64,000 bases of DNA. Source: Thalassia testudinum. Taxonomy: Eukaryota > Streptophyta > Magnoliopsida > Alismatales > Hydrocharitaceae. Shown here piece by piece: positions 8,386 to 64,000 of the stretch (the stretch's first letter is position 1; every line of letters begins with the position of its first letter). Below the pieces are notes generated by a model. It saw only the letters and a list, made by a program, of their open reading frames with translations, made no database searches and was not told the DNA's origin. The DNA lies in the NCBI GenBank assembly GCA_037157565.1, contig JAZHRO010000012.1:7528501-7592500 (forward strand). Direction: 5' to 3'. The position numbers and the translations under genes are program-made.

Positions 8386-9913
8386 GTTGGAGACTCACGG
8401 AGGAGGTGAGTAGTTGGCGACCCTAGGAGTCACAAGGGTACTGCGGGGTGGTGATAGTGGCGAGGCAGACACGACCAGAGCTGATGGATCATATCGTGAC
8501 TAGGCAGATGACGGATCCATATCTACAGACACTGCGAGATCGGATATTGACAGGAAGCCTAGGAGAGTTCTCATTCATTGATGGGGTTCTACGTATGTGG
8601 GGACACTTGTGCGTTACTAGAGACGAGAAGCTATTGAGAGAGCTCCTGACTAAGGCACACGGATCCAGATTCACCATACATCCCAGGAACACGAAGATGT
8701 ACCATGACTTATGACGTGATTTCTGGTGGAGGGGCATGAAGCGGGATGTTGGTCATTTTGTTCAACAGTGTCTGATATGTCAGCAGGTGAAGGCCGAGCA
8801 TCGGAGGCCTGCAGGGCCGTTACAGCTGCTTCCCATGCCAGAGTGGAAGTGGGAGAGTGTCACTATGGACCTGGTAGTAGGGTTACCCGTGACACAATGA
8901 GGACACGACACAGTCTGGGTGATAGTAGACAGATTGACGAAATCGACACGTTTTCTGTAGATTCGCATCACGTCTGGACCAACATAGCTAGCGGAGCACT
9001 ACATTCGAGATGTGGTGTGCCTTCAGGTGGTCCCTCACGAGATTATTTCAAATAGAGACACTCGTTTCACTTCTCAGTTTTTGTCAGAGTTTCAGTGTGC
9101 TCTGGGGACTCGTTTGAGGTTCAGTACGGCATATCACGCCCAGCCGACGGACAGTCAGAGTGCACCATTCAGACCCTTGAGGACCTTCTACGTGCTTGTG
9201 TACTAGACTGGAGGGGTTCCTGGGAGGAGCATTTTCCCCTGACAGAGTTTGCATACAACAGGTATCACTCAAGCATTGGCATGGCACCGTATGAGGCCTT
9301 ATACGGGAGGAGGTGTACTACTCCCTTGAGCTGGGTTGGGGTGGGGACTAAGTGGGAGGTTGGTTCCAGGTTGATACGTTAGAGTCAGGAGGTGATCGAG
9401 CAGATCCATCGACGACAAGGTACCGTCAGGAGCAGGTAGAAGAGCTATGCTGATTTGAAGCGTAGAGAGGTACAATTTGAGGTTGGGGATCACGTCTTCC
9501 TCTATGTTTCACCCATGAAGGGCTTGTAGAGGTTTGGGGTGAGAGGGAAGCTTACGCCATGATTTGTGGGGCCTTTTGAGGTCCTGGAGCGGGTAGGACC
9601 CATTGCTTACCAGCTTGCCCTTCCTCCCCAGCTTTCTGGAGTACATGACGTGTTTCACATGTCCAACCTCAAGAAATACATCGCCGATCCCAGCCATGTT
9701 ATGAGCCACGAGAGCATCAAGGTGGGAGACTACTTGACCTATCCCGAGAGGCATGTACAGATACTAGACCGAGCCATCCGGAGATTGGGACGGAAGGAGG
9801 TGCCCCTGGTGAAGGTCCTGTGGAGAAGCCAGTAGTACGAGGAGGCCACTTGGGAGCCTAAGGTGGTGATGCGAACACAGTATCCCAAGCTTTTTCACTG
9901 TACGTCGTTCTAA
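8386..9913 (+). pseudogene. Tekay-like integrase with C-terminal chromodomain, decayed
   Basis: The integrase zinc-binding region is readable over about 8640-8800 (H..H; CLICQQ). The catalytic core starts with the first Asp in TMDLVVGLP (about 8866). The second catalytic Asp is replaced by Asn (ISNRDTRF, about 9053, a G-to-A change), and the Glu region is split between frames near 9150. The C-terminus (9566-9913) carries DVFHMSNLKKYIADP and the chromodomain core EVPLVKVLWRSQ..YEEATWEP, which reads marks such as methylated histone H3 in active relatives. TAG at 9833 interrupts the chromodomain and TAA at 9911 ends the frame. Chromodomain type and flanking motif favour the Tekay/Del clade. Confidence 0.8.
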
Positions 9914-12505: not shown

Positions 12506-12869
12506 CGACGTGTTCCACGTGTCCAGTCTCAGGAAGTACATTGCCGATCCCAGTCATGTTTTGAGCTACGAGAGCATCGAGGTGGGAGATGACTTGACCT
12601 ATCCCGAGTGGCCTATACAGATACTAGACCAAGCCGTCCGGAGATTGAGACAGAACGAGGTACCCCTTGTGAAGGTCTTGTGGAGAAGCCAGCGGTATGA
12701 GGCCACTTGGGAGCCTAAGGCGGCGATGTGAGCACAGTACCCCGAGCTTTTTGACGGTACGTCGTTTTGACCTACTTCGATTCTCTTTAGGTTTGTTATG
12801 CACATTTATTTTATTTCCTTACCCTTGTCAGCTCAAGTTTCGGGGACTAAACTTTCTTTAAGTTTATTA
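12506..12869 (+). pseudogene. Tekay-like chromodomain remnant between two LTRs
   Basis: Second copy of the extreme 3' end of pol, matching 9646-10013. It reads DVFHVSSLRKYIADP, then the chromodomain core EVPLVKVLWRSQRYEATWEP, ending at TGA 12729. Here the chromodomain has no internal stop, unlike the first copy. It is joined directly to the end of an LTR (GTGACA/CGACGTG) with no primer-binding site, so everything from primer site to integrase core is deleted from this unit. Confidence 0.8.
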
Positions 12870-15800
12870 TGTTGAAATGATCTTTTCTTTGAGTCGTTTG
12901 GCATTTTCGAAATTCGTAGGGGCTTTCCTTCAATTTTAAACCCCTTATCTTTTGTTTTGAGGGTTTGTGAGGGGGAGAGGAAAATTGCAGGGGCATCCCT
13001 GCAATTTCCCCACCACCTCTCCTCACCATATGCACCCTATTCCCTCCCCCTCACTCCACATGCCTCACCTCTCCCCCCTGATGAGAAGCTCATCATGGTC
13101 TCTAATTACCCCTAATTAACTAGTCTTCCTAGTTAATTAGCTAGGAATATGTAAATATATGGGTTAATTATTAAATAAGGGATAAAATAGTAAATGACCT
13201 TAAAATAAGTTAAAAATATTATATTATTATCCAATTAATATTATTAATAATTTAATTAATAAGTGGACTCGAAATATCATCAGTAATTTATCAAATTAAT
13301 GTGTTAACTAACTTAAGTATAATTTATACCTAAGTATGTAATAACTTCAGTAACCTTACTTAATTAAATAAATTAAGCTAAAAAGATCAAAAATGTAAAT
13401 TCAAGGTTTAAATATAATAATTGTCTTATTTATAATCATATATAAAAAGTTGAAAAAGATTTAAATTAAAATAAACCTTGAAAACCTTAGTTTACATTTT
13501 AGTCCTTATGTTTTATTTCAATCGAGTCCTTATTCTTCACTTAGGTCCTCAATTTTCATTACAGGTAAGTCCCTGAAAACTTCTTCTTCTTCTTTCCTTC
13601 TTCAGCCTCTTTGACGGCTAACGACAGGAGGTACATACACCCACTGATCACCGCGTATCCGATGTCCTTTTCTAAACTCCTGGAGCTTGTGCTCACCATC
13701 CTCTTTTCATCCATTGGTCTGGATGAAGCTACAATTCCATTTTAGGTTTGAAGTTAACCTCACCAGCGTCGAAGAAGGCACAGGTGGTTACTTCACTCCT
13801 AGACCTTTCTCCATCCAGATACATCCTCCTCCTCAGTCGCCGCAACCTACAAATACCCCTCCACACCCTCGATTTCAGCAGTTAGCTCCATTCCCTCTTC
13901 TTCCAGTAAGCTAACAGATAGGCTATTCCCTCCAAAATCCGGCGACCTTCTCCCGCTTCCTCCGTCTTCCTCCTCGCTCTGGATCTCCGCCGACGTCCAC
14001 TGAGTCTTTTGACGCAGCGCTAACGCTAGATTTCCTCTGCTTCACTTCGCCTACACCTGCCAGACTTCTTTCCTCGCCCCTTTGATTTTCACCTTCGTTA
14101 AGGACCTTCGACAGAGATCTTTTGCCCCCTTCATCCAGGTAATAGTAGGTTAGGTAAGTAGTTTAAGTAGAGTAGTTAGTTAGGTAGATTAGACAGACTT
14201 AATGTTAGATTTTCAGTCATCTTCCTCAGCTCCGACGAGCTCGTTGAGCTTGACTAGAGCATTCTTTTATCTTTTTAAAACATCAATCACCTTCCTTAAT
14301 CTCCCATGATCATTTCTAACATCTTAATTCTCTGATTTGATCACCTATTTGCCTAATCCACCTTCACCTTCACCGGTTGCTTCTACTGTCTATGGCGGAG
14401 GTCACTAAGGGTAATCCACCTCCACTGGGGCCCTCCACCACTTAACCGTCACTTAAGGGCCCCTATCTTCACTTTAATTTGAATAATAATCATTTATTTA
14501 GCAAATATCTAAATTTCATATACTCTCCTGAGCTTGCTATCAATGGCAACTCAGGAGGAGTTCCTATAGCTAATTAACCATCTCTATTTCATAGCCACTT
14601 CCTTCTGACTTGTTTTCTCCACTCAATTGAGTGAGAAAACATGTCCTGAGCTCAATTGAACTCAGAATCTGATCAATGTCAATTCATTGCATATCTTCCA
14701 GTTTAATTGTTAATTGAAGAAATTAATGTGTTCCTAAGATTTCTTGTGACCTCAAGAAACTTTTCAGATCATCCATGGCATGTTTTAATGTTATTTGCAC
14801 TTATTTAGCCATTTTCTGGACTCATGGGAGCTCCGACGAGCTCCGATGAGTCAAAAATGTACTCTTCAGCCCATAGAACTTTGCATGAAGCTCCAGATCA
14901 TTTATTTGAGGTTCACTGAGCATTCTGTAACATTTTGTTTGAAGTTTTAAGACCTAGAGCTCCATCTAGACCTCTATCTTCTCCAACTCTGGCAGAGTTG
15001 GAGATGACTATTGGTTAGGGTTAAGCCTAATTTTAAAGGTTTAGAAGCATCAAAAGGATGCCCTGAGATCAATTCAATAGATCAATCACTTAGATAGGCC
15101 TTAGTTTGTTCCGTCGAACAAACTCACTTAGGATCTTAGGTGATAGGCCTAAAACCCTAGAAATCCTAGTTGAAACTTCCTTCTGAGAATCTGAATCTAT
15201 TTCTGAGGTGAAATAGAAGTGAATTAAGGCATTAATTTCATCTGAGATAACCTAATGAAGAAAGTTAGATTTCAAGGAGTAATGGTCAAACTCAGATCAA
15301 AATTGATGATTCAGTCATCAATTAGGGGAATTGATGGGTGGAAATGATTTCTAGAATGATTTTAAATGATTTAAATTTGACTTAGATGAGTTTAGGTTAG
15401 GATTTCACATGAGTTCGAATGCCGTTCAGTTTGGGTTGTTTTTGAACCCAAACTGACGATAGTGTGTTTTTGGTGAATTTCAAATGAAAAATTTATACAG
15501 ATAGATCCTTAACAACCTTTAGAGGTTGTTTGAGTTGAAGAAGTAGATCTTTAGTTGTCTATTGGACTAAATAGATTGAGAAATGGAGCTCTGAAGCTCC
15601 TTAGCGAAGATTTTGAGCTGCTTTGCCTTCCTGAAGCTCTTAAGAGTATTTTCACTTCTTTAGTAGGTGCAGAAACACCTACTAAACTGATTCAGCACTT
15701 GGTCTGAGGTCAAAGGGTCACTCTGCAGGACCTTAGAGCTGAAGTACTGCTCTGCAGGCCAGAATGGCCGTGGTGATACAGACTTTTCGCCCTTCAAATC

Positions 15801-15950
15801 GAAGAGCAAGATCTTCCCTCAGTATCAAATTGATACTGCAATCTTGTAGAGTCTCCTTAGAGCTTTCTAGCGAGCCTTTATTTACTCGATTTGGAGCTCT
15901 GATGTGGCCAGAGCCTTCAATTGATTCTTGGCCTGGAAGGGGAAAAGATA

Positions 15951-15962
15951 GTCCCACATCGG
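15951..15962 (+). promoter_or_regulatory. USE-like motif GTCCCACATCGG in the solo LTR
   Basis: GATAGTCCCACATCGG matches the upstream sequence element (RTCCCACATCG) of plant snRNA promoters, with an A/T-rich stretch GGATAAAAGTAAAATG about 25 bp further on. Similar GTCCCACATCGG motifs are also common in plant LTRs, so this is more likely an LTR promoter part than an snRNA gene. No snRNA sequence follows. Confidence 0.45.
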
Positions 15963-16304
15963 CAAAGGAGAAGTGCCCACCTTAGGATAAAAGTAAAATG
16001 TGTATGGGGTTGTTCGGTCGTCAGTGCTGGGCGCACAAATGAGCATTATGTGTGTGTGGGCATGCGAGCGTGGGCCCGTGAGGGCGTGTTGCATGTGGGC
16101 CTGGGAGGCCGTGGGCCGAAGTGGCTGGAGACTATGTTGAACAGGAAATAAACCAAACCGAATAAAAACTAGGCTCAGACCTAGTAGGGTCTGGTCCCAC
16201 CCTGAGAGGGGTGCTGTGTATCCCCGACCGGTCCGACCCGCCAACCATAGAATCAAATTTTTGGTTCAGATGGGTTCAAATCGGTTTGGTTCAGCTCTGT
16301 TGCA

Positions 16305-16515
16305 AAGGAAAAGGAGAAGAAGAGGAGAGCTTGTTGGGTTGAATAGAATAAAAAAAAGAGAAGCAAAGGAAGGGTAAACAGGCAAAAGAAATAAAAAGAA
16401 AGATTAAGAAGAGATGTATAAGAAGAAGAGCTCCAGACAGAAAGATTAAGAGAAAGGTAAAAAGAGAAAAGAGAGAGAGAGAGAGAAACGTAGAAGAAGA
16501 AGAGAAGAAGGATTG
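16305..16515 (+). repeat. Purine-rich (A/G) tract in the solo LTR
   Basis: About 200 bp made almost only of A and G, including (GA)n at 16470-16488. Comparable tracts of about 400 bp lie at 35573-35970 and 45890-46272 in the LTRs of the 33489-46580 element, at a similar distance from the LTR end. Confidence 0.7.
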
Positions 16516-17226
16516 AGGCTGAAGATTATGAAGAAAGAATGGAATTTCTTTTTGTAATTCTTACTTAAATACTAATTTCTTTTGAGCTTAAATGATGTAA
16601 TAAGGTATATATTCATTGGAATTTCTTTTTCTTGCCTTAATCTTTTGTAAATAAGAAGAAATTAAAGAAATAAACATGTTTACTTGTTTGTAGTAGAAAA
16701 TCATATGTGTAAATATGTTTTCCATATGAAATTTTGCATGTTTTTCAATTGGAAATCCTTAAGCAAGATTCATATTTTTAGCGTAAATTTAATTATAATT
16801 CTCATAAGTAGCTTAGAATTTAGTGGTGAATTCAACTAAGTTATGCCTCCCAGTGAACGACCTGGACTCAACTAGTTAAAAAGAACTAAAATCTAAAATG
16901 TTAGGTTAACTTGACCCTATACTACTCAATTGACATAAATTCAAGTTGACCTAAGTTACTTTCTTTTGCACATAACTAAGCATAATTAACTTAATTAACT
17001 GTGTTGAGAAAGTTAACGACCACCCCCCTACGGCTACCACCATCCCCTCCTCCATGCCGTCCCCCTCACCTCCACTCTCCATATATACCCTCCTCCTCCT
17101 TCTGTTCCCACACTGGCAGTCGAGAGGAAGCGAGAGAAGGGGGAGCCGAGGTGGTGGTGCTGCTGTAGACTTCCGCGGCGAGAAAGGATTCAGAAACAGT
17201 TATGCGGAATCATTTTTCCACATAAT

Positions 17227-17530
17227 CAGATGTTTGAAGTTACCTCCAGACGTCTGGTAGGATGTCAGAAGGTAACCTCAGACGTATGGTAGAGTAGTTT
17301 TCTTCAATTATTTTCCTGCCAAAGTCCTGATTGAGTACGCACATGTGTCAGAGGTTGGGAGGCACATCGGTGCGAGGATCGAGGTGATTTCAGACGTCCG
17401 GGATCATCTCCAGACATCTGAAGGCACCCTCAGACGTTTGCACTGAGTGCCAGACGTCCGAGGAAGGTGTCCCGAGCAAGGTATGCCTGTGAGTTCGTTT
17501 AAGACGTCTGGAACCTTTCCTAGACATTTG
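17227..17530 (+). promoter_or_regulatory. 20-bp-phased palindrome array (second Tekay-like LTR)
   Basis: Sites start at 17227, 17247, 17259, 17279, 17391, 17411, 17431, 17451, 17501 and 17521, reproducing the step pattern of the first LTR (20-12-20, 20-20-20, 20). Several sites have decayed by CpG transitions (CAGACATCTG, CAGACGTTTG), but the spacing is unchanged. Confidence 0.65.
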
Positions 17531-18846
17531 ATTTCAGTCAGGATTGGTATTTTTGGGTCCATTCCGGGTCCAAATGATGTTGGCTTTTTGCAAACGAAAT
17601 GTCTTTGGTTTCCGTGTGAGTTTCTCTATGTAGTGGTACTTTGTCTATGTCATTTTGAATACTTTTGACCTACCAACCCATGTCATAGGTCTCCAGTCCG
17701 TCGAGTATACGGGACCTGCGGAGACGTCGAGAGCTATTATATGAGCCCCCATTCCACCCGGTTACCCTGGTAGAGTGGTTCTTACCCTAATTTTGAAATT
17801 AATAAAGTGCAAGCATAAAATTAGTTGAAGACGTAAATGCATGCTTTAGAATACATTTATTCGATTGAACCCTAGGTTGTGACATGAATACTAAGGCTAG
17901 AGAAAATGCATGTATAGAGAAATGAATGATTGAATAAATCATAAGCTGCCCGTACTACCTGAAAGGAACCACGTTATAAATAGAAAACAAACTCGTACTG
18001 TGATAAATATGGAAATTGAGCTGCCTGTTTGGTATGTAACAAACCGAGATGAAATAAGAATAGTTTATGTACGAACCCTATGGGGAATGTAGAACGAGAC
18101 AAGAATACTGTAGTACAAAGAACCGGATGGTTCCAGAACATGTCGCCACTGGCAACTGTTCGGACTGGGTTTAGGGAGTGAGCTGGCCTTCGTGTACGTA
18201 GTGTAGAATCCCTACCAGGAGGGGGTGACGTAATAAAATGCGGAATAGAATATAAACAATCTCAAAAAATTCAATCACACAAGGTACACAATTATTTTTA
18301 GGTGGAAACCCAAACTGGGTGAAAACCACCACCTAACCCTCTCGAGTTAGGATTTTCCGATCAACAAAGTTGATCAAATCCACTAAACGAATCACTTAAA
18401 AGAGGGTGATTCAACCTCAATTACAACCACGCTACAAATGCGAGGGTAGCGTTCCTCAACCCCTTCTCTTCACGAGAAGGATTTTGTCTCACGAAGGAGA
18501 CGGGAATTCGCAAAGCGAATACCCAACCAAATAACAAAGTAAAATAACAAATATAGTCCTATAGAGCCAACAAAGATTTAAACCTAGCTTTTATAGGAAT
18601 TAGGAAACTCCCTTTTGCAAGGAGTGTGTCGAATCGATGACGCGGGTGTGTGAGCCACGCGACGACGCAACGTCGCTCTCGTGAACTACGGCGGGAGAGC
18701 GGGTGCGCAAAGGCTTGATGCTCTCAAGATGTGGAACTTGAGCTTGGAAAGCAAGAGCTTTTCTTGGACACAAAAGAGTGTGAAAGTGTATTATTAGGTG
18801 TATCTTGTGTATCTAGGTGTATGTTTGTGTGCAAGAGGTTCCTCTC

Positions 18847-18854
18847 TATTTATA
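18847..18854 (-). promoter_or_regulatory. LTR TATA box (TATAAATA)
   Basis: Minus-strand CTCTATAAATAGAGAGG; the matching box in the other LTR is at 22673-22680. It lies about 110 bp downstream of the palindrome array in the element's orientation. Confidence 0.65.
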
Positions 18855-18965
18855 GAGGCCTTAGGAAAGCTTTGGAAGGCTTTGGAAAGCTTCCATAGCC
18901 GTTGGGTGAAAAGCCCAAGAGAATTAGGCCGAAATCAGGAACAATGATTGCACTGACAGGGTTGT

Positions 18966-19504
18966 CAGACGTTTGATCCTGGCATTAGACGTCTAGGAAA
19001 CCAGTTTAAGACGTCTGAAAATAAGGTCAGACGTCTGATTTTATGCGGGTTTCTTCCTGACTTGAATCAGATCTAAACAAGGTTCTAGTGCAACTCCATC
19101 AGACGACATACAGGATGTCTGGAACTATGTCTGGACGTCTGGAAACCTACTTTTTCGTGGGAATGGATTTCCAAGAGTTGCAACGACTAGAAAATCTCTG
19201 AGAAGAGATTTTGGGTCAGCCGAGGCAAAACGGTCATCTATCAGACGTCTGGAAAGGCTTAAGGACGTCTGATAAGGTTCTAACAATCATATCTTCAGTG
19301 TTTGCTAAGCCAGCCAACGGTCCACTAATTGGACGTCTGGCAAAGTCATCAGACGTCTTCTAAGACGTCTGGACAGAGGTATGGACGTCTGATTTCATCA
19401 AACAGAGCTAACAAGTCCAGCCTAAATGTTATCAGACATCTGAATAAACAGTTAGACGTCTTAAAACACATTATCAGACGTCTAATTTTGGAATTAGACG
19501 TCTG
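18966..19504 (-). promoter_or_regulatory. Array of paired CAGACGTCTG palindromes in U3 (3' LTR)
   Basis: Sites start (plus coordinates) at 18966/18986, 19008/19028, 19100, 19112/19132, 19242/19262, 19330/19350, 19362/19382, 19433/19453 and 19475/19495. Slashes mark pairs exactly 20 bp apart; pairs join by steps of 12 or 22. Spacers within pairs are 10 bp and unrelated in sequence. The array sits upstream of the TATA box, so an enhancer bound by bZIP-type factors is the simplest reading (inference). Confidence 0.7.
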
Positions 19505-19913
19505 AAAAAGTAGTTTGAACCCTATATTGGTTTTCTAAGTTCTCTATAGAAAACCTAAGTATCCTAGGGTTGTGCAGGTGTTCCTGAGACTACTGTTAGG
19601 GTACTTTGAGGCTCTTTAACATGATGTTCTATGGAACAAAAAGAGCAAGGAAATAAAGACAAGAGTACATGAAAGAAATAAACAGAATTCTATCCTATTC
19701 TTCTTGTCATTCCATCTTCAATCTATCGCTCCTCGCGAATCTTCTCTGTTCTCCATCAAGCTCCTCCAATCCGTTCTGGATGCGAGCTCGAACTCCGTCT
19801 AATCACATCTCCATTTGCAATTTACCTGAAATGTAAGACTCCAAGTGTAAATGTTAAATGACACGTGTTTTGTTATCATCAAAACAAACGATCGCGGTGC
19901 TCTAGCACCAACA

Positions 19914-19927
19914 ATCTCTCCCTTTTT
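19914..19927 (-). other. Polypurine tract of SIRE-like element
   Basis: Minus-strand AAAAAGGGAGAGAT ends directly at the 3' LTR start TGTTGG. This is the expected place and composition for the plus-strand primer. Confidence 0.8.
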
Positions 19928-20236
19928 GATGATGACAAAACCATAAATAAAGCAGAAAAAATCCTCCCCCTTTTTGACATTATCAAAAATGTTTGATTGA
20001 TTTTAAATTTCCTATGACTCTCCTTTAAAACATGCTCTTCTATGAATTTCTTTTAACAAAAGTAATGTCCTCCTTTTTCTAACAACAAGATAGCTGTTTT
20101 TCTTCTCCTCCTTACTAAAGGAATTTTAGCTACCTTACATCTCCCCCTTAAAAATTGACAATTAGCTCATAATTTTTTAACTCCCCCTATCTAAATGCTT
20201 ATGATAAAAGGATAGGGTAAAGAATTTTTACCTCAC

Positions 20237-21973
20237 CTACCATGGCCAGTAAAATGGTACAAATGGTGGTGGATGCCACATCGGATGGGGCTCCCATCCG
20301 TAGCTTGGAGACCCGGGCATTGGCGCCGGTCTCCAGTCTGGTGGTCGACGTGCGGCGGGTCCATCGTTTGTTCGCCATCTCGTCGGTCTTCTTGTTCTCC
20401 TCCTTGGTCTACTCCTTGGTTCTCCCAACTCGAGTTGACTAGCCTTGAGCTTGTAGATCCAGTCATTCGTGTTGTAGTTATCCCTGAAACCTACAAAATG
20501 GGATTCCAATTCTTTCTTCGGTATCCAAGTGAGCTTGGATCCAGATCTGTTAGGGGGTCGTTTTGACGGAGATCCTGTCTCAACCTTAGGGCTATAAAAA
20601 TTATCTACTTTGTTGATTAATTTATTGGAGTTTTCCCTAAGACATGCAATTTCTTTTTCTATAATATGCATCTTAGTCTTTAAATCAGAAATTTCTAACT
20701 TTAAACTATTATTTTCTTCAATCAATTTAGTATTTTCATTGATTAAATTTTTACTTTCTAATAACAGGTTATTATTCTTAGGACTAGAGCTACTTTCTAG
20801 GTCCTTAAGTTTTATTTCTAACCTATCATTTTCAGATTTAAGAAAGCTAAGGTTCTTTTTAATGCTTTTGTTTTCTATTCTTAATGTTTTACTAACATCA
20901 AATAGTCCATTAAAAGTTTCTTGTAAATCGAAATTTACCTCGTTGTCTGAGTCGCTTCCGCTTTCGTTGTCGCTATCACTTCCTTTGGCCATGAAATCAA
21001 AGCAAGCGGTTTCTTCTTCTATAGACTTTTCTTCTTCTTCTTCCTCCGAGCTCAAATCGTCCCAAGTGGCTTGGAACGCCTTCTTCTTAGATTTCTTCTC
21101 CTTTTCCTTCTTCTTCCTTTTTAGAAGAGGGCATTCTGGTCGCAGATGCCTTTTCTCGTTGCAGTAGTAGCAACGTCTCGGGCTTTCTTTCTTCTCCTTC
21201 TTCTTTGATTCCCTACACAACTTGGAAAACTTTTTAAGTAAAATTTTAATGTCTTCGTCGTCGGAACTTACCTCGCTATCCGACGCGACTTTGAAGGCGA
21301 GAGTCTTCTTCGGTTTAGGCTCCAGTGTATCCTTCTTCTTCTGCTTCAACTTAGTCTCGTAGGCCATTAGATTGCCTAGGAGATCTTCCATGTTGAGCTC
21401 CTCCACTTCGTTCGCCTCCTCGATGGCGGTGACTTTCTGTTCCTACTCTGGTCCAAGGGAACGAAGAAGCTTCCCTTGAAGCTCCCCCTTGATGAAAGTC
21501 TTCTCTAAAGCTTTCAAATTTTTTACTATGAGAGTGAACCTAGTGTTCATCTCACTTAAAGTTTCGTTAGATTTCATGGAAAAAGCCTCAAACTCTTGTG
21601 AAAGTAAATTGAGTTTAGAAGTTTTTACCTTAGAGGTACCTTCATGAGTTACCTCGAGTGTGTGCCAAATCTCGTATGCAGTGGCGCATTGCGAGATTCT
21701 ATTAAACTCCTCCGAGCTGAGCGCGCAGTATAACGCGTTCATAGCTTTCACGTTGAGTGAGAGTTCTCGAATCTGCTGCTGTGAGTAGCCTGCTGCAGGT
21801 CTTTCTGGGACGTTGAAGGGGGTCTCGCAACGGTCCCATATTGTAAATTCGGTGGCTTGAAGCCATGTCTTTATCTGTAGCTTCTAGTAGCTATAGTTGT
21901 TCCCGTCGAAATAGGGTGGTCGGATGGTGGACTACACCTAGGAAATCCTGCTCGCGGAACTACTCCCCTCCAT
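20237..21973 (-). pseudogene. SIRE-like GAG with four in-frame amber codons
   Basis: The capsid/nucleocapsid protein of the element packages its RNA. From an ATG at 21973 the frame reads PPYFDGNNYSY, then a UBN2-type Copia GAG block (AYEIWHTLEVTHEGTSKVK), LLRSLGPE, an acidic/lysine-rich stretch, a CCHC knuckle (CYYCNEKRHLRPEC, about 21165), a long coiled-coil-like Lys/Asn/Glu region, and WIPKKELESHF. Four TAG codons interrupt it: two close together after the start (about 21936-21942), one after NYSY (a Trp position) and one after SLGPE (about 21426). There is no frameshift. The last ~60 residues (20237-20420) are Arg/Pro/Trp-rich and GC-rich, unlike the rest. No pol follows; only about 320 bp separate GAG from the polypurine tract. 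Confidence 0.88.
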
Positions 21974-22013
21974 AGGATCTTCGCGGGTGTGTAACGCCGA
22001 TAACGTGAAACCT

Positions 22014-22025
22014 GCTTTGATACCA
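22014..22025 (-). other. Primer-binding site, initiator tRNA-Met type
   Basis: Minus-strand TGGTATCAAAGC begins two bases inside the 5' LTR. It differs by one base from TGGTATCAGAGC, the complement of the initiator tRNA-Met 3' end used by most plant Copia elements. Confidence 0.85.
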
Positions 22026-22027
22026 AT

Positions 22028-23739
22028 TGTAGAATCCCTACCAGGAGGGGGTGACGTAATAAAATGCGGAATAGAATATAAACAATCTCAAAAAATTCAA
22101 TCACACAAGGTACACAATTATTTTTAGGTGGAAACCCAAACCGGGTGAAAACCACCACCTAACCCTCTCGAGTTAGGATTTTCCGATCAACCAAGTTGAT
22201 CAAATCCACTAAACGAATCACTTAAACGAGGGTGATTCAACCTCAATTACAACCACGCTACAAGTGCGAGGGTAGCGTTCCTCAACCCCTTCTCTTCACG
22301 AGAAGGATTTTGTCCCACGAAGGAGACGGGAATTCGCAAAGCGAATACCCAACCAAATAACAAAGTAAAATAACAAATATAGTCCTATAGAGCCAACAAA
22401 GATTTAATCCTAGCTTTTATAGGAATTAGGAAACTCCCTTTTGCAAGGAGTGTGTCGAATCGATGACGCGGGTGTGTGAGCCACGCGACGACGCAACGTC
22501 GCTCTCGTGAACTACGGCGGGAGAGCGGGTGCGCAAAGGCTTGATGCTCTCAAGATGTGGAACTTGAGCTTGGAGAGCAAGAGCTTTTCTTGGACACAAA
22601 AGAGTGTGAAAGTGTATTACTAGGTGTGTCTTGTGTATCTAGGTGTATGTTTGTATGCAAGAGGTTCCTCTCTATTTATAGAGGCCTTAGGAAAGCTTTG
22701 GAAGTCTTTGGAAAGCTTCCATAGCCATTGGGTGCAAAGCCCAAGAGAATCAGGCCGAAATCAAGAACAATGATTGCACTGACAGGGTTATCAAACGTCT
22801 GATCCTGGCATCAGACGTCTGGGAAACCAGTTTAAGACGTTTGAAAATAAGGTCAGACGTCTGATTTTATGCGGGTTTCTTCCTGACTTGAATCAGATCT
22901 AAACAAGGTTCTAGTGCAACTCCATCAGACGACATACAGGACGTCTAGAACTATGTCTGGACGTCTGGAAACCTACTTTTTTGTGGGAATGGATTTCCAA
23001 GAGTTGCAACAGCTAAAAAATCTCTGAGAAGAGATTTTAGGTCAGCCAAGGCAAAATGATCATCTATCAGACATCTGGAAAGGCTTAAGGACGTCTGATA
23101 AGGTTCTAATGGTCATATCTTCAGTGTTTACTAAGCCAGCCAATGGTCCACTAATTGGACGTCTGGCAAAGTCATTAGACGTCTTCTAAGACGTTTGGAC
23201 GGAGGTATGGACGTCTGATTTCATCAGACAGAGCTAACAAGTCCAGCCTAAATGTTATCAGACGTCTAAATAAACAGTCAGACGTCTTAAAACACATTAT
23301 CAGACATCTGATTTTGGAATTGGACGTCTGAAAAAGCAGTTTGAACCCTATATTGATTTTCTAAGTTCTCTACAGAAAACCTAAGTATCTAAGGATTGTG
23401 CAGGTGTTCCTAGGACTACTGTTAGGGTACTTTGAGGCTCTTTAACATGATATTCTAAGAAACAAAAAGAGCAAGAAAATAAAGACAAGAGTACATGAAA
23501 GAAATAAGCAGAATTTTATCCTATTCTTCTTGTCCTTCCATCTTCAATCTATCGCTCCTCGCGAATCTTCTTTATTCTCCATCAAGCTCCTCTAATCCGT
23601 CTTGGATGCAAGCTCGAACTCCGTCTAATCACGTCACCATTTGCAATTTGCCTGAAATGTAAGACTCCAAGTGCAGATGTTAAATGACACGTGTTTTGTT
23701 ATCATCAAAACAAACGATCGCGGTGCTCTAGCACCAACA
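22028..23739 (-). repeat. 5' LTR of SIRE-like element (1712 bp)
   Basis: Partner of 18202-19913 with identical length. Its palindrome array occupies 22792-23330 and its TATA box 22673-22680. Some sites intact here have decayed in the other LTR and vice versa, mostly at CpG. Confidence 0.93.
22792..23330 (-). promoter_or_regulatory. Array of paired CAGACGTCTG palindromes in U3 (5' LTR)
   Basis: Same sites as the partner LTR shifted by 3826 bp, with the same 20-bp pairing. Differences are single transitions such as AAACGTCTG for CAGACGTCTG at 22792. Confidence 0.7.
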
Positions 23740-24841
23740 CGTAGTACCGAAGAGAGCAACTATCCCTTTTAGAGTAGAGGGGAGCTTGCCACCCCTTAGG
23801 TGGAGACCCAGGGTGGGTTTGGCCACTCTACGTTGACTCCTATTGGCCCTCGCGTACGTGGTACCGAGAGGAGCTACTTAGTGTAGGGGGGAGCTAGCTT
23901 CCTCAGGGGACTCGGGGTTAGGACTGGCCACTCTACACTGACTCCTATTAGGCCCACTGGGTAAACCGGGATAGTCGGACAAGGGTACGCGGACTGTGAG
24001 GGGCGAGACCCCTGTTTCTGAGTGGTGAGACCCCTGTTCTGAGAGGACCAGGCCTTGTCTATTCCGTGCTGTACGTTTGGGCGTACCCGCTAGCGTAAAC
24101 AACTGACTGCATGCCAGTGTGAGGTAGCTACCCGTATGCTTATCACGTGTGCTGTAGTCATTGCTACGTCGCGACTGTGACCTCGGGGTAGTAGACCGGT
24201 TGTAGGACTACCACGAGGGACTCTCCTGACCAGGAGAGTGGCACGTGTACATCCTACATCGTGGGAAAACTACAAACAAGATCGTTTCCTTAAGGAACAG
24301 GAAGATTGAGTAATGTCATGGAACCTGATTAGGGTATTCATATTAGCAACACGTAATAAGATAATTGGAATCGGAAGATAATATTTTAAGCTGCTTGTTT
24401 AAATTACATTACATGTTTTAGCCACCACTCTACTCAGCGTTAGCTGACTCCAGATGTTATAACTTTGTAAAAGTTAGGGATTCGAGCAGCCAGAGCCATC
24501 GGCTGCTAAGGGCGCTAGGTCCAGTCGAGCCAAATTGTAGTTCCCTTCTGTTAGTTGTTGTAGTGAGTTCCTGTAGTTCATGTTTTTTCAGCTATATGTG
24601 TACTAGTTTTTGTTGTGATGGCTATGTTCTATACTAGTTATGTTACGATGGCTTGTAATATTATGGTGATTACCGTTCTCTTGCTTTATGATCAGTTTTA
24701 TATTTGTTACTTAGTTACAATACTTGTGTGGTTGTGAAATAAATGTGTATTCGGTTATTTCTCGCTAGACAACTGGATTTTAGGATTCGTCGAGGTGACC
24801 CGTCTTCGGGTTCTATAGGGAGTCGGGAATGGGCTATGACA

Positions 24842-33357: not shown

Positions 33358-35330
33358 GGCTGCAACTAGGGCTCCCCGTCCCAACTCCCATTGCAGCTCT
33401 ACCTTTGGTGCTCCATGTGACCAAGCCCGCTGGAATAGCGTCGCGACTCTCGCCTTTCAGTGCTCCACGAGGATCACGACTCTGCGCTTGATGAGAATAC
33501 CATCATGAGCCCTAACTAGCCCATTTTGACTCATAAAAGAGAACAAAAGCTCCTACATAACCAATTTGAGGTCTTAATTCACTGAATAACCTTTTTGAGA
33601 GAAAATAAGAAACAAGGGGTAAAACTGTAATTTTACCAATGCAGTTCAACAACAGGTTTTCTTAAGGGCTGAACACAGGCTAAATGATCTTAACAAGATA
33701 ATAAGTGGGTTGAATCAGACAGAAAAGGGTTCGTGTGAGTTCTGGGAATTAAATGACTTCTCGTAACCCTAAAACAAATCCACTTGATAAAACAAGGTTC
33801 TGATCAGGATAAAATTCATCTAAACCCTTTAAAAATCATAAAAAAATATTTTCTAGGTTTATAACTTTCAATTTGGCCATTGGAACCCATTTTGACCTAG
33901 AATGGGGTCTTAGACAAATATTTGCCCTAATTTGGGTTTTTACGTAAATTGCTAAGTCAAACGTGGTCAAACCCAAAATTCAACCTCACCATTGGATTCC
34001 TTAGGTCCAAATTAGGTTTGTGCCAAAATTTGGATCTAAGGGGAATTTATCTTAACCCACTTTGCAAATAGGTGTAGCCTAATTACATTTCTACCCCTAT
34101 CTTTCAAAAACCCTTGCATTTGACCCCCTAGATTCTTCATCGTTCTTTGCAATTAGGTCCCTCCACCATTATAGCAGAGGGAATCCTACTCCGACGAGCT
34201 CTAGAAGGAGATTTCTCCCTGATTTCTCAGAGAATCCCATTCAAAATTGAAAAGGAGATTCTCTGAGAAATCCTCTCCAATGTAAACCCAATTTGAGGCC
34301 TTACTTGGTACCCGATCTCTCATGTGAACGCATGAAAGATTTGGGTCTCTTTTGATTTACCATTGCCGGTGAACCTACCTCACTTGGAAGCTTGGCTTCC
34401 AAGCATAAGACCGACCTCCAGGGCCTATTTAAGACACCCCAGATTGCCCCGACTCTCCTAAGCTTGAAATTAGTTGGAAAGCCCCCTCAATTTTGTCTCT
34501 CCTCCTCCGGCTGACTTGCTCATCAAGCTCCGACGACCTCTCCTACTCTCTCTCATCGCCTAGCCACAATACTGGTGCAGGTTCCCCTTCCTCACACTCG
34601 TCCGCGTCGCGCAGCACTCGCCGACGCCCCTGCCTCCCCTTCGTCCTTGCCGACCATCCTCACTGAGCACCTTTGTCTCCAGCGTCGGCAATACGCGACA
34701 GACTCCATCTCCGTCTCCCCCTTCGTCTCTTCACTCCCAAATAAGTCTCTCTCACTCTCTACTTTCTTTCCCCCTTCTTTATTCCCCCGAACAACTACTG
34801 TTGCACTCCACCACCATCATCCCCTTCACCTTCGTTCACCAACTCCGGCGAGCTCGCTCCACCTCCACAGACCACCTCCTTCCTCGCCGATCGGTCCATA
34901 AGCACCGCCTCGACTCACTGTTCATAACCCCCCACTCATATCACTCCGCCACTCACCCAAACGCACCCCCGAACACACCCACACACATGGCCGCAGTGTG
35001 CCCTAGGCATGCTCTCATAGGTGTTCCCATGCCACGCTGACCACCTTTGCACGTTCGCTGCACCTTGGCGAAACTCCCTGAGTTTTCTTAATGTGGCTGC
35101 TAGATCGTTGTCGTGATTTCAGGTCCAGGATCTCTTTGCCATTGACGTCGGGCTTGAAGCTTGCTTGCAAGCTTCTCTAGGCTGTGCTCGCTCTAGGTCA
35201 TAGTCCCAGGTTGTGCGGAAAGTCTTCGCGAACATCTCCAGGCATCCAATTGGTGTCGAGGGCCATAGCTGCAGCTGCAATTGAAGGAAGCCACTCTACT
35301 GCAGGCGCGTGCGAAGGAGGTGGGAAGATA

Positions 35331-35341
35331 GTCCCACCTCG
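35331..35341 (+). promoter_or_regulatory. USE-like motif GTCCCACCTCG in 5' LTR
   Basis: GAAGATAGTCCCACCTCG closely resembles AAAGATAGTCCCACATCGG in the solo LTR at 15945-15962. It is absent from the 3' LTR because of the ~480-bp length difference. Confidence 0.4.
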
Positions 35342-35572
35342 AAAAGTTGTGGAGCGCCGCACCCGCATAAAGTGAATTTCTGCCATAGGCTCTTCGCCTC
35401 CAACTCACGGGGTGAGGTCCTTCTCTCACCCAACCCGACGCCTCATCCACGACCACGCCCTGCGGACCTGGTGACCCGACCCTACTAGCACACCTCGCCT
35501 ACCACCGCACGGTGATGGGCCTGGTCCCGGGTGCATACCCTACCCGATTACCCGTGAAGCGTGGCTCTAGGA

Positions 35573-35970
35573 GAGTGGAACCTAAGAGAGAAAGGAGAGA
35601 AGAGAGCTCATGCAGGTAGGGGGTAGGTTTTGCTCTGCAGAGGAAGAGAAGCCAAGACAAAGGAAGAGGAAGGAGAAGACAAGGCCAAAAAGAAGCTAAG
35701 GAAGAAGGAGAAGGGTTGTAGTAGAAGGAAGAAGCCAAAGAGAGGAAGGCAAGGAAGGCAGAGAAAGAAAAGAGAAGAAACTGAAGGAAGAACAAGCTGA
35801 AGGTAGCCGGCAGAGAGAGAGAGAAAAAGGTAGAGGAAGAGAAAGGCTAAGGTAGGAAAGCTAAGCCAGAGAACAGGGAAGAAGGAAGATAAAGAAGATT
35901 GAAGACAAAGGTAGAGACAGAGACAGAAGACCAGGAGAAGAAGAAGAAAAGAAAGAGCCAAGCACTGTAG
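35573..35970 (+). repeat. Purine-rich tract in 5' LTR (~400 bp)
   Basis: Mostly A/G with GAGAGA, GAAGAA and AAGGAAGA runs; the counterpart in the 3' LTR is 45890-46272. Such homopurine DNA can form triplex structures; any role is inference. Confidence 0.7.
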
Positions 35971-36278
35971 CATAATCGTTGTAAGGCATTTGATTCACAA
36001 ATCAGACGTCTAATTTTGAGCTTTATTCACATACATTGGTTTCTTTAGTATTTTGTGTCTTACATTTACTTCTATCTTTTTGCACTATAACATTGATTTT
36101 ATTGCATATTCTTTTAAATTCTAAAGTTGTGATCTTGATTTCTAAACCCTAATTCGCTCCCTGTGTTCGACCTCAGACTTTAAAATTTGAGTAATAAAAT
36201 TGTATTTGTTTTGAATGCTTTTTCAGCTATACTACAATGCGACCTTTTTAAAACCTGATCAAGCGCGACGAACATTTT

Positions 36279-44270: not shown

Positions 44271-46580
44271 TGATGGGAACACCATCATTTGCCCTAATTA
44301 ACCCATTTTTACCCATAAAAGAGAACAAAAGCTCCTACATAACCAACTGAAGGTTTTAATTCACTGAATAACCTTTCTGAGAGGAAAATAAGAAACAAGG
44401 GGTAAAACTATAATTTTACCATTGCAGTACAACAATGGATTTTCTCAAGGGCTAAACACAGGTCAAATGGTCTTAACAAGATAATAAGTGGGTTGAATTA
44501 GACATAAAAGGGTTCGTGTGTGTTCTGGGAATTAAATGACTTCTTATAACTCTAAAACAAACCTACTTGATTAAACAAGGTTATAGTCAGGATAAAATTC
44601 ACCTAAACCCTCTAAAAATTATAGAAAAATATTCTCTATGGTTTAGAACTTTCAATATGGCCAATGGAACCCATTTTGACCTAGAGTGGGGTCTTAGACA
44701 AATATTTGCCCTAATTTGGGGTTTTACATAAATTGCCCTATCAAACGTGGTCAAGCCCAAAATCCAACCTCACCATTGGATTCCTTAGGTCAGAATTAGG
44801 TTTGTATCAAAATTTTGACCTAAGGGGAATTCATCTTAGCCCACTTTGTAAGTAGGTCCAGCCTAATTACATTTCTACCCCTATCTTTCAAAAATCCTTG
44901 CATTTGACCCCTATCTTCTTCATCATTCTTTGCAATTAGGTCCCTCAGCCATTATAGCAGAGGGAATCCTACTCCGACGAGCTCTAGAAGGAGATTTCTC
45001 CCTGATTTCTCAGAGAATCCCATTCAAAATTGAAGGGGAGATTCTCTGAGAATCTCCTCCAATGTAAACTCATTTTGAGGCCCTACTTGGTTCCCAATCT
45101 CTCATGAGAACGCATGAGAGATTTGGGTCTCTTTCGATTTACCATTGCTCGTGAACCTACCTTGCTTGGAATCTTGGCTTTCAAGCACAAAATCGACCTC
45201 TAGGGCATATTTAAGACACCTCAGATCGCTCCGACTCTCCTAAGCTTGAAATTAGTTGGATAACCCCCTAAATTTCATCTCTCCTACTTCGTCCGACTTG
45301 CTCATCAAGCTACGGTGGCCTCTCCTAGTCTCTCTTGTCTCCTAGCCAAAATACTAGTGCCAGGTTCCTCTTCCTCACGTTCGTCCGCGTTGCGCAGCAT
45401 CCGCCAACGCCCCTGCCTCCCCTTCGTCCTCGCCGACCATCCTCACTGAGCACCTTCGTCTCCGGCGTCAGCAATACGCGACAGACTCCATCTCCATCTC
45501 CCCCTTCGTCTCTTCACTCCCAGATAAGTCTCTCTCACTCTCTACATTCTTTCCCCCTTCTTTATTCCCTCAAATGACTACTGTCACACTCCACCACCAT
45601 CATCCCCTTCACCTCCAGCCACTAACTCCAGTGAGTTTGCTCCACCTCCATAGACCACCACCCTCCTCGCCGACCTGACGGACCTGGTGACCCGACCCGA
45701 CACCTCCACAGAGTGAGGTCCTTCTCTCACCCAACCCGATGCCTCGTCTGCGACCACGCCCCACGGACCTGGTGACCTGACCTGACCAGCACACCTCTCC
45801 CACCACCGCACGCTAATGGGCTTGTTCCTGAACGCGTACCCAACTCGATTACCGGTGAAGCGTGGCTCCGGGAGAGCGGAACCTAAGAGAGAAAGGAGAG
45901 AAGAGAGCTCATGCGAGTAGGAGGTAGGTTTTACTCTGTAGAGGAAGAGAAGCCAAGCCAAAGGAAGAGGAAGGAGAAGACAAGGCCGAAAAGAAGCTAA
46001 GGAAGAAGAAGGAGAAGGGCTGCAGCAGAAGGAGGAAGCCAAAGAGAGGAAGGCAACGAAGGTAGAGAAAGAAAAGAGAAGGAAGAAATTGAAGGAAGAA
46101 GAAGCTGAAGGCAGTCAGCAGAGAGAGAGAAGAAGGCAGAGGAAGAGAAAGGCTAAGGCAGGAAAGCTAAGCCAGAGAACAGGGAAGAAGGAAGATAAAG
46201 AAGAAGATTGAAGACAAAGGCAGAGACAGAGACAGAAGACCAGGAGAAGAAGAAAAGAAAGAGCCAAGCACTGTAGCATAATCGTTTTAAGGCGTCTGAT
46301 TCACAAATCAGACGTCTAATTTTGAGCTTTATTCACATACATTGGTTCCTTTAGTATTTTGTGCCTTACATTTACTTCTATCTTTTTGCACTATAACATT
46401 GATCTTATTGCATATTCTTTTAAATTCTGAAGTTGTGATCTTGATTTCTAAACCCTAATTTGCTCCCTGTGTTCGACCTCAGACTTTAAAATTTGAGTAA
46501 TAAAATTGTATTTGTTTTGAATGCTTTTTTGGCTGTACTACAATGCGACCTTTTTAAAACTCGATCAAGCACGATGAACA
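44271..46580 (+). repeat. 3' LTR of Athila-like element (2310 bp)
   Basis: Starts TGATGGGAACACCATCAT directly after GCATGGGGGTA and ends CACGATGAACA. The start forms a perfect hairpin (TGATGG/CCATCA). The ~480 bp of 5'-LTR sequence around 34900-35390 is missing here near 45670-45715. The purine tract is at 45890-46272, and a palindrome pair (46289, 46309) lies 20 bp apart near the end. Confidence 0.9.
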
Positions 46581-62995: not shown

Positions 62996-64000
62996 TGTTG
63001 GTGCTAGAGCACCACGATCATTTGTTTTGATGATAACAAAACACGTGTTATTTAACATTTGCAATTTGAGTCCTAGATTTCAGGTCAATTGCAAATGTGG
63101 ACGTGTTTAGACGGAGTTCGAGCTCGCATCCAGGACGGATTGGAAGAGCTTGACGGAAAACAGAGGAGGTTCGCGTGGAGCGAAAGATTGGAGATGGAAG
63201 ACAAGAAGAATAGGATAGATTCCTTTTTATCCTTTCATGTATCTCTTGTATTTATTTTCTTGCTCTTTTTGATTCCTTAGAACATTATGTTAAAGAGCCT
63301 CAAAGTACCCTAAAAGTAGTCCTAGGAACACCTGCACAACCCTAGGATACTTAGGTTTTCTGTAGAATACCTAGAAAACCAATATAGGGCTCAAACAGCA
63401 TTTCAAGACGTCTAATCCCAAAATCAGACGTCTGATAAAGAATTCTAAGATGTCTGACTGTTGTTTCAGACGTCTGATAACTGTTAGGCTGGACTTAGTT
63501 TTCTGTCTGATGAAATCAGACGTCCAGACCTTAGACCAGACGTCTTAGAAGACGTCTGATGGATTTGCCAGACGTCCAGATAGTGGACCGTTGGCTAACT
63601 TAGCAAGCACGGCAGTATATGACCGTTAGAGCCTTATCAGACGTCCATAGGTCTTCCCAGACGTCTGATAATTGACCGTTTTGCCTCGGCTGACCCAAAA
63701 TCTCTTCTCAGAGATTTTCTAGCCGTTGCAACGTTTGGAAATCAATTCCCACAGTAAAAGTAGGTTTCCAGACATCCAGACTTAGTGCCAGACGTCCTGT
63801 ATGTCGTCTGATGGACTTGCGTAAAAACCCTGTTTAGATCTGATCCAAGTCAGGGAGAGACCCGCCCAAAATCAGACGTCTGACCTTTGTATCAGACGTC
63901 TTATAGTGAACTTCCAGACGTCTGATGCTAGAATTAGACGTCTGATAAGCCTGTCAGAATAATGATTGTTCCTGATTTCGGGCTGATTCTCTTGGACTTT
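62996..64000 (+). mobile_element. SIRE-like LTR, left part, runs off the window
   Basis: Begins TGTTGGTGCTAGAGCACCACGATC, the same start as the SIRE-like LTRs (their minus strand). It follows them through TTGATGATAACAAAACACGTG and the palindrome array. Inserted in the RT of the LINE; the 5 bases before it are ACTGG. At least 1005 bp are present. The short open stretch 63089-63280 lies in U3 and is not a gene. Confidence 0.88.
63405..63944 (+). promoter_or_regulatory. Array of paired CAGACGTCTG palindromes (third SIRE-like LTR)
   Basis: Sites start at 63405/63425, 63447/63467, 63517/63537, 63549/63569, 63638/63658, 63769/63789, 63801, 63873/63893 and 63915/63935. Steps are 20-22-20, 20-12-20, 20, 20-12 and 20-22-20. 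This mirrors the order in the SIRE-like LTRs at 18202 and 22028, read in reverse, although many spacers have diverged. Confidence 0.7.

What the first reader, a model, noticed from the sequence alone, without database searches (positions are those of the whole stretch)
63405..63944. Paired 10-bp palindromes, exactly 20 bp apart, form a structured array in SIRE-like U3
Seen directly: 17 near-copies of CAGACGTCTG in 540 bp, of which 16 form eight pairs starting exactly 20 bp apart (10-bp site, 10-bp spacer, 10-bp site). Pairs join through steps of 12 or 22 bp, giving modules 20-22-20, 20-12-20, 20, 20-12 and 20-22-20. The spacers differ in sequence, so this is not a decaying tandem repeat: site and spacing are kept, spacer sequence is not. 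Twenty bp is close to two helical turns, which places partners on one face of DNA. In the related LTRs (18966-19504 and 22792-23330) the array lies about 110-650 bp upstream of the TATA box. Known: GACGTC is a C-box/ACGT core for plant bZIP factors. Inferred: a cooperative multi-dimer binding platform acting as enhancer, silencer-escape or targeting element. I know of no published description of this layout.
Basis: partly seen in the sequence, partly recalled or inferred. Interest (0 to 1): 0.93.

Follow-up and report, generated by a model that had tools for sequence, protein, structure and literature searches.

The report
Shared palindrome arrays in retrotransposon LTRs
Two unrelated families of plant jumping genes carry in their end repeats the same ladder of ten-letter palindromes set 12 or 20 letters apart, which looks like a docking strip for one DNA-binding protein that both rely on.

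Summary
Confirmed. The window holds 17 near-copies of CAGACGTCTG at 63405-63944 with eight gaps of exactly 20 bp; 200,000 random placements gave at most six.

In the 4.26-Gb host genome exact AGACGTCT pairs occur 212,299 times at 20 bp, 54,917 at 12 and 43,822 at 22, but 825 at 19; reversed-pattern controls give 1-6. The 21-bp count did not complete.

The kind is known: palindromic repeated motifs upstream of the TATA box in Sirevirus LTRs (PMC2829016). Two things go beyond the parts I read: the exact 20/12/22 spacing, and the same motif with 20/12 steps in a Ty3/gypsy chromovirus whose LTR shows no homology to the Sirevirus LTR.

Sites are the slowest part between Sirevirus lineages (5 fixed changes in 170 columns; spacers 28 in 108), yet decay after insertion (16 changes, all transitions; Fisher p=3e-6).

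Best reading: a spacing-constrained array for a dimeric, probably host-encoded protein, acting as LTR enhancer. Factor and output are inferred. Arrays also grow by in-register duplication.

The parts
63405..63944 (+). Array of 17 CAGACGTCTG-like sites in U3 of a Sirevirus LTR (the given finding)
62996..64000 (+). LTR of that Sirevirus (TGTTGG start), cut by the window end before its TATA box
18202..19913 (-). 3' LTR of a short Sirevirus copy (LTR-gag-LTR), target duplication ctacg at 18197-18201
18966..19504 (-). Same 17-site array in that LTR
18846..18855 (-). TATA box CTATAAATAG, about 112 bp downstream of the array
22028..23739 (-). 5' LTR of the same copy, target duplication at 23740-23744
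22792..23330 (-). Same 17-site array in the 5' LTR
20237..21442 (-). gag-like frame of the short copy; its relatives carry the copia-type gag domain PF14223
10473..10774 (+). Array of 10 sites in a Ty3/gypsy LTR, gaps 20,12,20,110,20,20,20,50,20
9602..9832 (+). End of the Ty3/gypsy integrase (SH3_Tf2-1, PF24626) just upstream of that LTR
17227..17530 (+). Homologous 10-position array in a second Ty3/gypsy LTR (17023-18201 continued at 23742-24841, split by the Sirevirus copy)

Best explanation
The array is an LTR cis-regulatory platform of many copies of one dimer-binding site (palindrome YCAGACGTCTGR, strongest in AGACGTC) at fixed steps of 12, 20 or 22 bp. One sequence-specific plant DNA-binding protein, most likely host-encoded and perhaps an ACGT-core bZIP, binds neighbouring sites at set distances and cooperatively raises LTR transcription or accessibility. 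A Ty1/copia Sirevirus and a Ty3/gypsy chromovirus in this genome depend on the same factor, so both keep the site and the 20/12 steps while spacers drift. New sites arise by in-register duplication of modules. After insertion the sites, rich in CG and CHG, are methylated and decay by C-to-T change. Shown: sites, spacing, genome-wide excess, sharing by two superfamilies, slow evolution of sites between lineages, transition-only decay. Inferred: protein binding, cooperativity, enhancer output, host origin of the factor, methylation.
For: Eight exact 20-bp gaps of 16 never reached in 200,000 placements; the 10-site Ty3 array has six of nine against a maximum of 4. Genome-wide exact pairs 212,299 / 54,917 / 43,822 at 20 / 12 / 22 bp against 825 at 19 and controls of 1-6. 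Same motif and 20/12 steps in a Ty3 chromovirus identified by its domains with a non-homologous LTR (masked alignment P 0.15). Site columns 5 fixed and 16 post-insertion changes of 170, other columns 67 and 17 of 400, p 2.8e-6. Distant Ty3 arrays: sites 74-79% identical, spacers 39-48%, flanks 48-52%. Position upstream of the TATA box in the Sirevirus and at the start of the Ty3 LTR, upstream of a TATA-like TTAAAAG.
Against: No binding, expression or methylation data. Spacing is partly inherited: a 52-bp module duplication, weak spacer similarity within arrays. The second Ty3 array and the 10473 and 17227 arrays lie downstream of TATA-like sequences, so position is not fixed, and the 5' LTR of L011 lacks the second array. 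Spacer indels do occur: one step of 19 in L011 and 825 pairs at 19 genome-wide. The selection test has three copies and counts decay private to one LTR as fixed. Long-gap phasing is not significant.
Confidence: 0.55

Rival explanations
1. Structural reading: palindrome pairs form hairpins in RNA of the 3' LTR (site 1 with 4, site 2 with 3) that serve the element's RNA or feed small-RNA production, as proposed for maize Sireviruses.
For: The 540-nt array folds at z -10.3; 7 of 8 modules tested fold at z -2.7 to -7.6, one (63769-63810) at -0.6. Small RNAs pile up on palindrome-rich regions of maize Sireviruses (passages of PMC10760457 and PMC5311732).
Against: Any set of palindromes folds this way. 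Only 1 of 158 predicted pairs has a kept two-sided change, though with just three sequences. Sites 63517 and 63569 carry the same CCA end in all three LTRs, which breaks their mutual pairing. A hairpin gives no reason for exactly 12 or 20 bp in two unrelated elements.
Confidence: 0.15
2. Relic of tandem duplication: the spacing only records the unit lengths in which the array grew, and nothing selects for it.
For: In-register 52-bp duplication in L003; distant Ty3 arrays differ by 38 alignment columns, about two steps; weak spacer similarity within arrays: P 0.003, 0.001 and 0.003 for three arrays, 0.07 for a fourth.
Against: Sites stay while spacers of the same age lose identity. Two elements without LTR homology share 12 and 20 steps. 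Spacers of the 63405 array do not resemble the Ty3 U3 spacers (P 0.98).
Confidence: 0.13
3. Anti-silencing platform: the arrays attract a factor, TE- or host-encoded, that removes DNA methylation rather than activating directly, in the manner of VANC on VANDAL elements.
For: VANC targets are dense short motifs that grew by tandem repeat formation, and VANC6 motifs also occur in the unrelated TE AT9TSD1 (passages of PMC5735166; abstract of PMC10398659). Here the motif is dense, grows by duplication and is shared by unrelated TEs.
Against: No candidate TE protein: the coding pieces of L011 searched show gag-pol domains only. Post-insertion changes at sites are all transitions, which suggests these copies were methylated there. 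No methylation data.
Confidence: 0.15

Closest known systems
Sirevirus LTR repeated-motif (RM) boxes, Bousios 2010, PMC2829016 (abstract and sections 9, 10, 11 and 19 read)
   Same: Many near-identical palindromes clustered in the first half of a Sirevirus LTR, upstream of a conserved TATA box; the wheat-type example Usier (GTCGGACGTCCGAC) shares the GACGTC centre.
   Different: The CGG-CCG core is replaced by CAG-CTG; a fixed 20/12/22 spacing is not described in the sections read; there RMs are called Sirevirus-specific within a Ty1/copia set, here a Ty3/gypsy element carries the same motif.
Maize Sirevirus palindromes (CACCGGAC-NNN-GTCCGGTG) as small-RNA hot spots; passages of PMC10760457 and PMC5311732 seen, the 2016 original not held
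   Same: Palindrome cluster in the LTR regulatory region; that palindrome too was found in another TE order (Helitrons).
   Different: Longer motif, GC-rich, discussed as RNA structure; no spacing rule in the passages seen.
VANC-target motif arrays of VANDAL transposons; passages of PMC5735166, abstract of PMC10398659
   Same: Dense short motif in TE noncoding DNA, amplified by tandem duplication, present also in an unrelated TE.
   Different: DNA transposons with their own VANC protein; motif YAGTATTAY is not palindromic; the word 'spacing' does not occur in the 2017 paper.
as-1 type tandem bZIP sites (TGA factors); passages of PMC9360754, the 2002 spacing paper not held
   Same: Two dimer sites at a set distance bound by two dimers; spacing matters. 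The 12-bp centre distance of as-1 is recalled, not from a call.
   Different: as-1 uses TGACG, absent here; two sites, not 17; no 20-bp step.

Membership tests
Sirevirus (element with the 63405 array) | Multiple polypurine tracts before the 3' LTR | tested here: met
   Several GGGGGAG-type tracts in the 350 bp before the 3' LTR of the 18202-23739 copy (seen directly)
Sirevirus (element with the 63405 array) | Inverted repeat around the PPT/3' LTR junction | tested here: met
   GTCATCATCAAAA before and TTTTGATGATAAC after the junction (seen directly; feature from the abstract)
Sirevirus (element with the 63405 array) | Conserved TATA box near the middle of the LTR | tested here: met
   CTATAAATAG at LTR position 1060 of 1712 (feature)
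Sirevirus (element with the 63405 array) | Copia-type gag and Sirevirus-lineage RT | tested here: inconclusive
   gag relatives carry PF14223; RT not tested: no copia-type YVDD motif was found in the window and one interior frame was scanned by Pfam
Sirevirus RM boxes (Bousios 2010) | At least 8 palindromic copies clustered in the LTR upstream of the TATA box | tested here: met
   17 sites, 112 bp upstream of the TATA box in two LTRs
Sirevirus RM boxes (Bousios 2010) | CGG-CCG core signature | tested here: not met
   None of the 17 sites of the 63405 array has both CGG and CCG; Bousios lists one exception, Tnd-1. Some Ty3 sites keep one of the two, e.g. CGGACGTCTG, CAGACGTCCG
Sirevirus RM boxes (Bousios 2010) | Cluster forms a CpG island | tested here: inconclusive
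   CpG observed/expected 0.87 at GC 0.45 in the array, window 0.58 at 0.43; no island program was run
Sirevirus RM boxes (Bousios 2010) | Confined to Sireviruses | tested here: not met
   Same motif and 20/12 steps in a Ty3/gypsy chromovirus LTR
Ty3/gypsy chromovirus (element with the Ty3 arrays) | gag, protease, RT, RNase H, integrase and chromodomain in Ty3 order | tested here: met
   L011: Retrotrans_gag, RVP_2, RVT_1, RNase H, Integrase_H2C2, SH3_Tf2-1, Chromo (integrase core rve just below its cut-off); window copies tied to it by BLAST and PF24626
as-1/TGA bZIP element | TGACG cores | tested here: not met
   0 on either strand in two arrays
VANC-type anti-silencing target | Loss of DNA methylation on binding of a TE-encoded protein | not testable with these tools
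   no methylation or binding data

The most novel reading that the evidence does not exclude
Two retrotransposon superfamilies of one plant have converged on, or exchanged, a single regulatory code: a palindrome with a strict 12/20-bp spacing rule, repeated hundreds of thousands of times, so that one trans-acting factor opens or un-silences both. The copies would form a genome-wide, coordinated set of binding sites for that factor.
Probability: 0.25. Interest if true: 0.85.

Novelty: new variant of a known kind. Interest (0 to 1): 0.66.

Why it matters
Bousios 2010 could name no factor for the Sirevirus palindrome boxes, and I saw none named in the listings and passages I read. Here motif and spacing are sharp enough to make probes for finding the factor, and a Ty3 element using the same code is an independent replicate. 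With 212,299 exact 20-bp pairs in one genome the factor would meet a vast pool of sites, which bears on how TEs share or compete for host activators and how LTR promoters keep working while being methylated and mutated.

Tried and rejected
Helical phasing across the whole array: phase coherence beats fully random placement (P 0.0008-0.002) but not placements that keep the short gaps (P 0.24-0.42), so it adds nothing.

Common origin of the Sirevirus and Ty3 arrays: spacers of the 63405 array resemble those of the 10473 array in the same direction (3.2 against 2.5 of 10; none of 3,000 shuffles reached it) and not reversed (P 0.81), but do not resemble those of the Ty3 U3 array (P 0.98; reversed 0.07), and resemble those of another Ty3 copy only reversed (P under 0.001; same direction 0.09). 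Masked alignment P 0.15. Inconsistent; exchange is neither shown nor excluded.

TGA factors: TGACG absent. RNA structure: no covariation support, with three sequences.

A third carrier: a repeat pair at 35983-36012 and 46289-46318 has one 20-bp pair; too little to count. L020-L022, picked for odd spacers, proved to match the Ty3 family.

Relatives elsewhere: viral contigs gave one pattern match, L001, not examined, and no gag relative. The genome tool says the host has no relatives held.

Literature: 10 searches. The motif string hit 16 papers, none of which looked from title or abstract like a plant TE paper. I saw no listing that describes the spacing or the sharing between superfamilies; I judged mostly by titles and abstracts. 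The 2016 Genome Research and 2002 NAR papers are not held.

Not obtained: the count at 21 bp and a GGACGTCC pair count.

Full report
What is there. The 540 bp at 63405-63944 hold 17 near-copies of CAGACGTCTG with gaps 20,22,20,50,20,12,20,69,20,111,20,12,72,20,22,20. Eight gaps of exactly 20 never arose in 200,000 random placements, maximum 6. The array sits in U3 of an LTR that starts at 62996 and runs off the window. Two homologous LTRs, 18202-19913 and 22028-23739 on the minus strand, belong to one short copy with a ctacg target duplication and carry the same 17 sites, about 112 bp upstream of CTATAAATAG. Several polypurine tracts, the inverted repeat at the LTR junction and the TATA box (seen; named as Sirevirus features), with gag relatives of copia type, mark the element as a Sirevirus; its RT could not be tested.

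The same code in an unrelated element. The window has two more arrays, 10473-10774 and 17227-17530, with gaps 20,12,20,110,20,20,20,50,20 (112 in the second). They lie in LTRs whose matches to the SIRE LTR are only short and site-centred, best E 2e-4 (masked alignment P 0.15), downstream of a Ty3/gypsy integrase end (PF24626). A fetched relative, L011, shows the family plainly: gag, protease, RT, RNase H, integrase, SH3 and Chromo domains, an LTR TGTAACGA...TCGTTACA followed by a tggtatcagagc primer site, a U3 array with gaps 12,20,12,20,12,20 in both LTRs, and in its 3' LTR only a second array further down. BLAST ties the window copy to this family in the coding tail and the LTR end; with sites masked, the arrays themselves were too diverged to group.

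Genome-wide test. The window lies in a 4.26-Gb genome of 237 contigs. Exact AGACGTCT pairs: 212,299 at 20 bp, 54,917 at 12, 43,822 at 22, 825 at 19; reversed-pattern controls 6, 1, 2 and 3. The 21-bp count did not complete. A 100-kb sample (ten stretches at round coordinates, of 20 asked; the other ten lay beyond contig ends) holds 126 sites at up to 2 mismatches against about 32 after shuffling. Its adjacent gaps up to 60 bp: 37 of 20, 15 of 12, 4 of 32, 3 of 35, 2 each of 8 and 50, one each of 19, 21, 22, 41 and 51. Three of the ten stretches hold 96 of the 126 sites.

Selection. With the pair L1/L2 (18202 and 22028 LTRs) recording post-insertion change and L3 (the 63405 LTR) against both recording lineage change, sites have 5 fixed and 16 post-insertion changes in 170 columns; other columns 67 and 17 in 400 (p 2.8e-6). 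Fixed rates are 2.9% in sites, 25.9% in spacers, 13.4% in flanks. All 16 post-insertion site changes are transitions, as expected of methylated CG and CHG cytosines; over the whole LTR pair the array has 31 transitions and no transversion in 540 bp, the rest 33 and 9 in 1172. Limits: three copies; 'fixed' includes decay private to L3, and up to three of the five look like that. For the two window Ty3 copies sites differ at 17%, spacers at 32%, flanks at 22%; transversions 2 of 100 against 20 of 261, p 0.049. Against four more distant Ty3 arrays, sites are 74-79% identical, spacers 39-48%, flanks 48-52%; the alignment may be anchored on sites. The four indels all lie in long gaps, but four events are few, and spacer indels exist elsewhere: a step of 19 in L011.

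Origin of spacing. Module duplication is real: L003's Sirevirus LTR has an extra in-register 52-bp copy of the 20-12-20 module, and Ty3 arrays differ by 38 columns, about two steps. Spacer similarity within arrays is weak but above shuffles in three of four arrays, partly because the palindrome extends to YCAGACGTCTGR. So spacing is partly inherited. What duplication does not explain is the slow evolution of sites and the same 12 and 20 steps in two non-homologous LTRs.

How it probably works. A dimer binds each palindrome; neighbours at 12 or 20 bp allow contact between dimers; the array raises transcription from the LTR promoter. The factor is unknown. TGACG is absent, which weakens TGA factors; a C-box-type bZIP stays possible. 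Hairpins fold well but lack compensatory change (1 of 158 pairs, three sequences). Anti-silencing in the manner of VANC is not excluded and would fit a motif shared by unrelated TEs.

What is known. Bousios 2010 (abstract and sections 9-11 and 19 read) describes palindromic RM boxes, at least 8 and up to 32 per element, mostly clustered in the upper half of the LTR before the TATA box, with a CGG-CCG core in all but one, calls them Sirevirus-specific within a Ty1/copia set, and names no binding factor. This array is that kind of thing with CAG/CTG ends where RMs have CGG/CCG, as CpG decay would leave them (inference), plus a spacing rule and a Ty3 carrier. In maize the Sirevirus palindrome also occurs in Helitrons (passages), so sharing across TE kinds has a precedent. 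My ten searches gave no listing describing this spacing or a Ty1-Ty3 sharing; the library lacks most subscription papers, so absence is not proven.

Verdict. Real, strongly non-random and genome-wide; known in kind, new (as far as seen) in its spacing rule and in crossing from Ty1/copia to Ty3/gypsy. Function is inferred.

Noticed in passing
35983-36012 and 46289-46318: A further repeat pair (33489-36274 and 44271-46580, about 90% alike) carries one 20-bp pair of the same motif; its element type was not identified.
   Followed up: partly
L003:936-1529: A Sirevirus LTR with an extra in-register 52-bp copy of the 20-12-20 module, a snapshot of array growth.
   Followed up: yes
18202-23739: Short Sirevirus copy, LTR-gag-LTR with about 2.1 kb between the LTRs, inserted into a Ty3 LTR with a 5-bp target duplication.
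   Followed up: partly
13079-17022: About 3.9 kb that seems inserted in a Ty3 LTR at a CCCCCCT run, splitting 12503-13078 from 17023 onward.
   Followed up: no
1661-2267: A 299-bp tandem duplication, downstream of a reverse-transcriptase frame.
   Followed up: no
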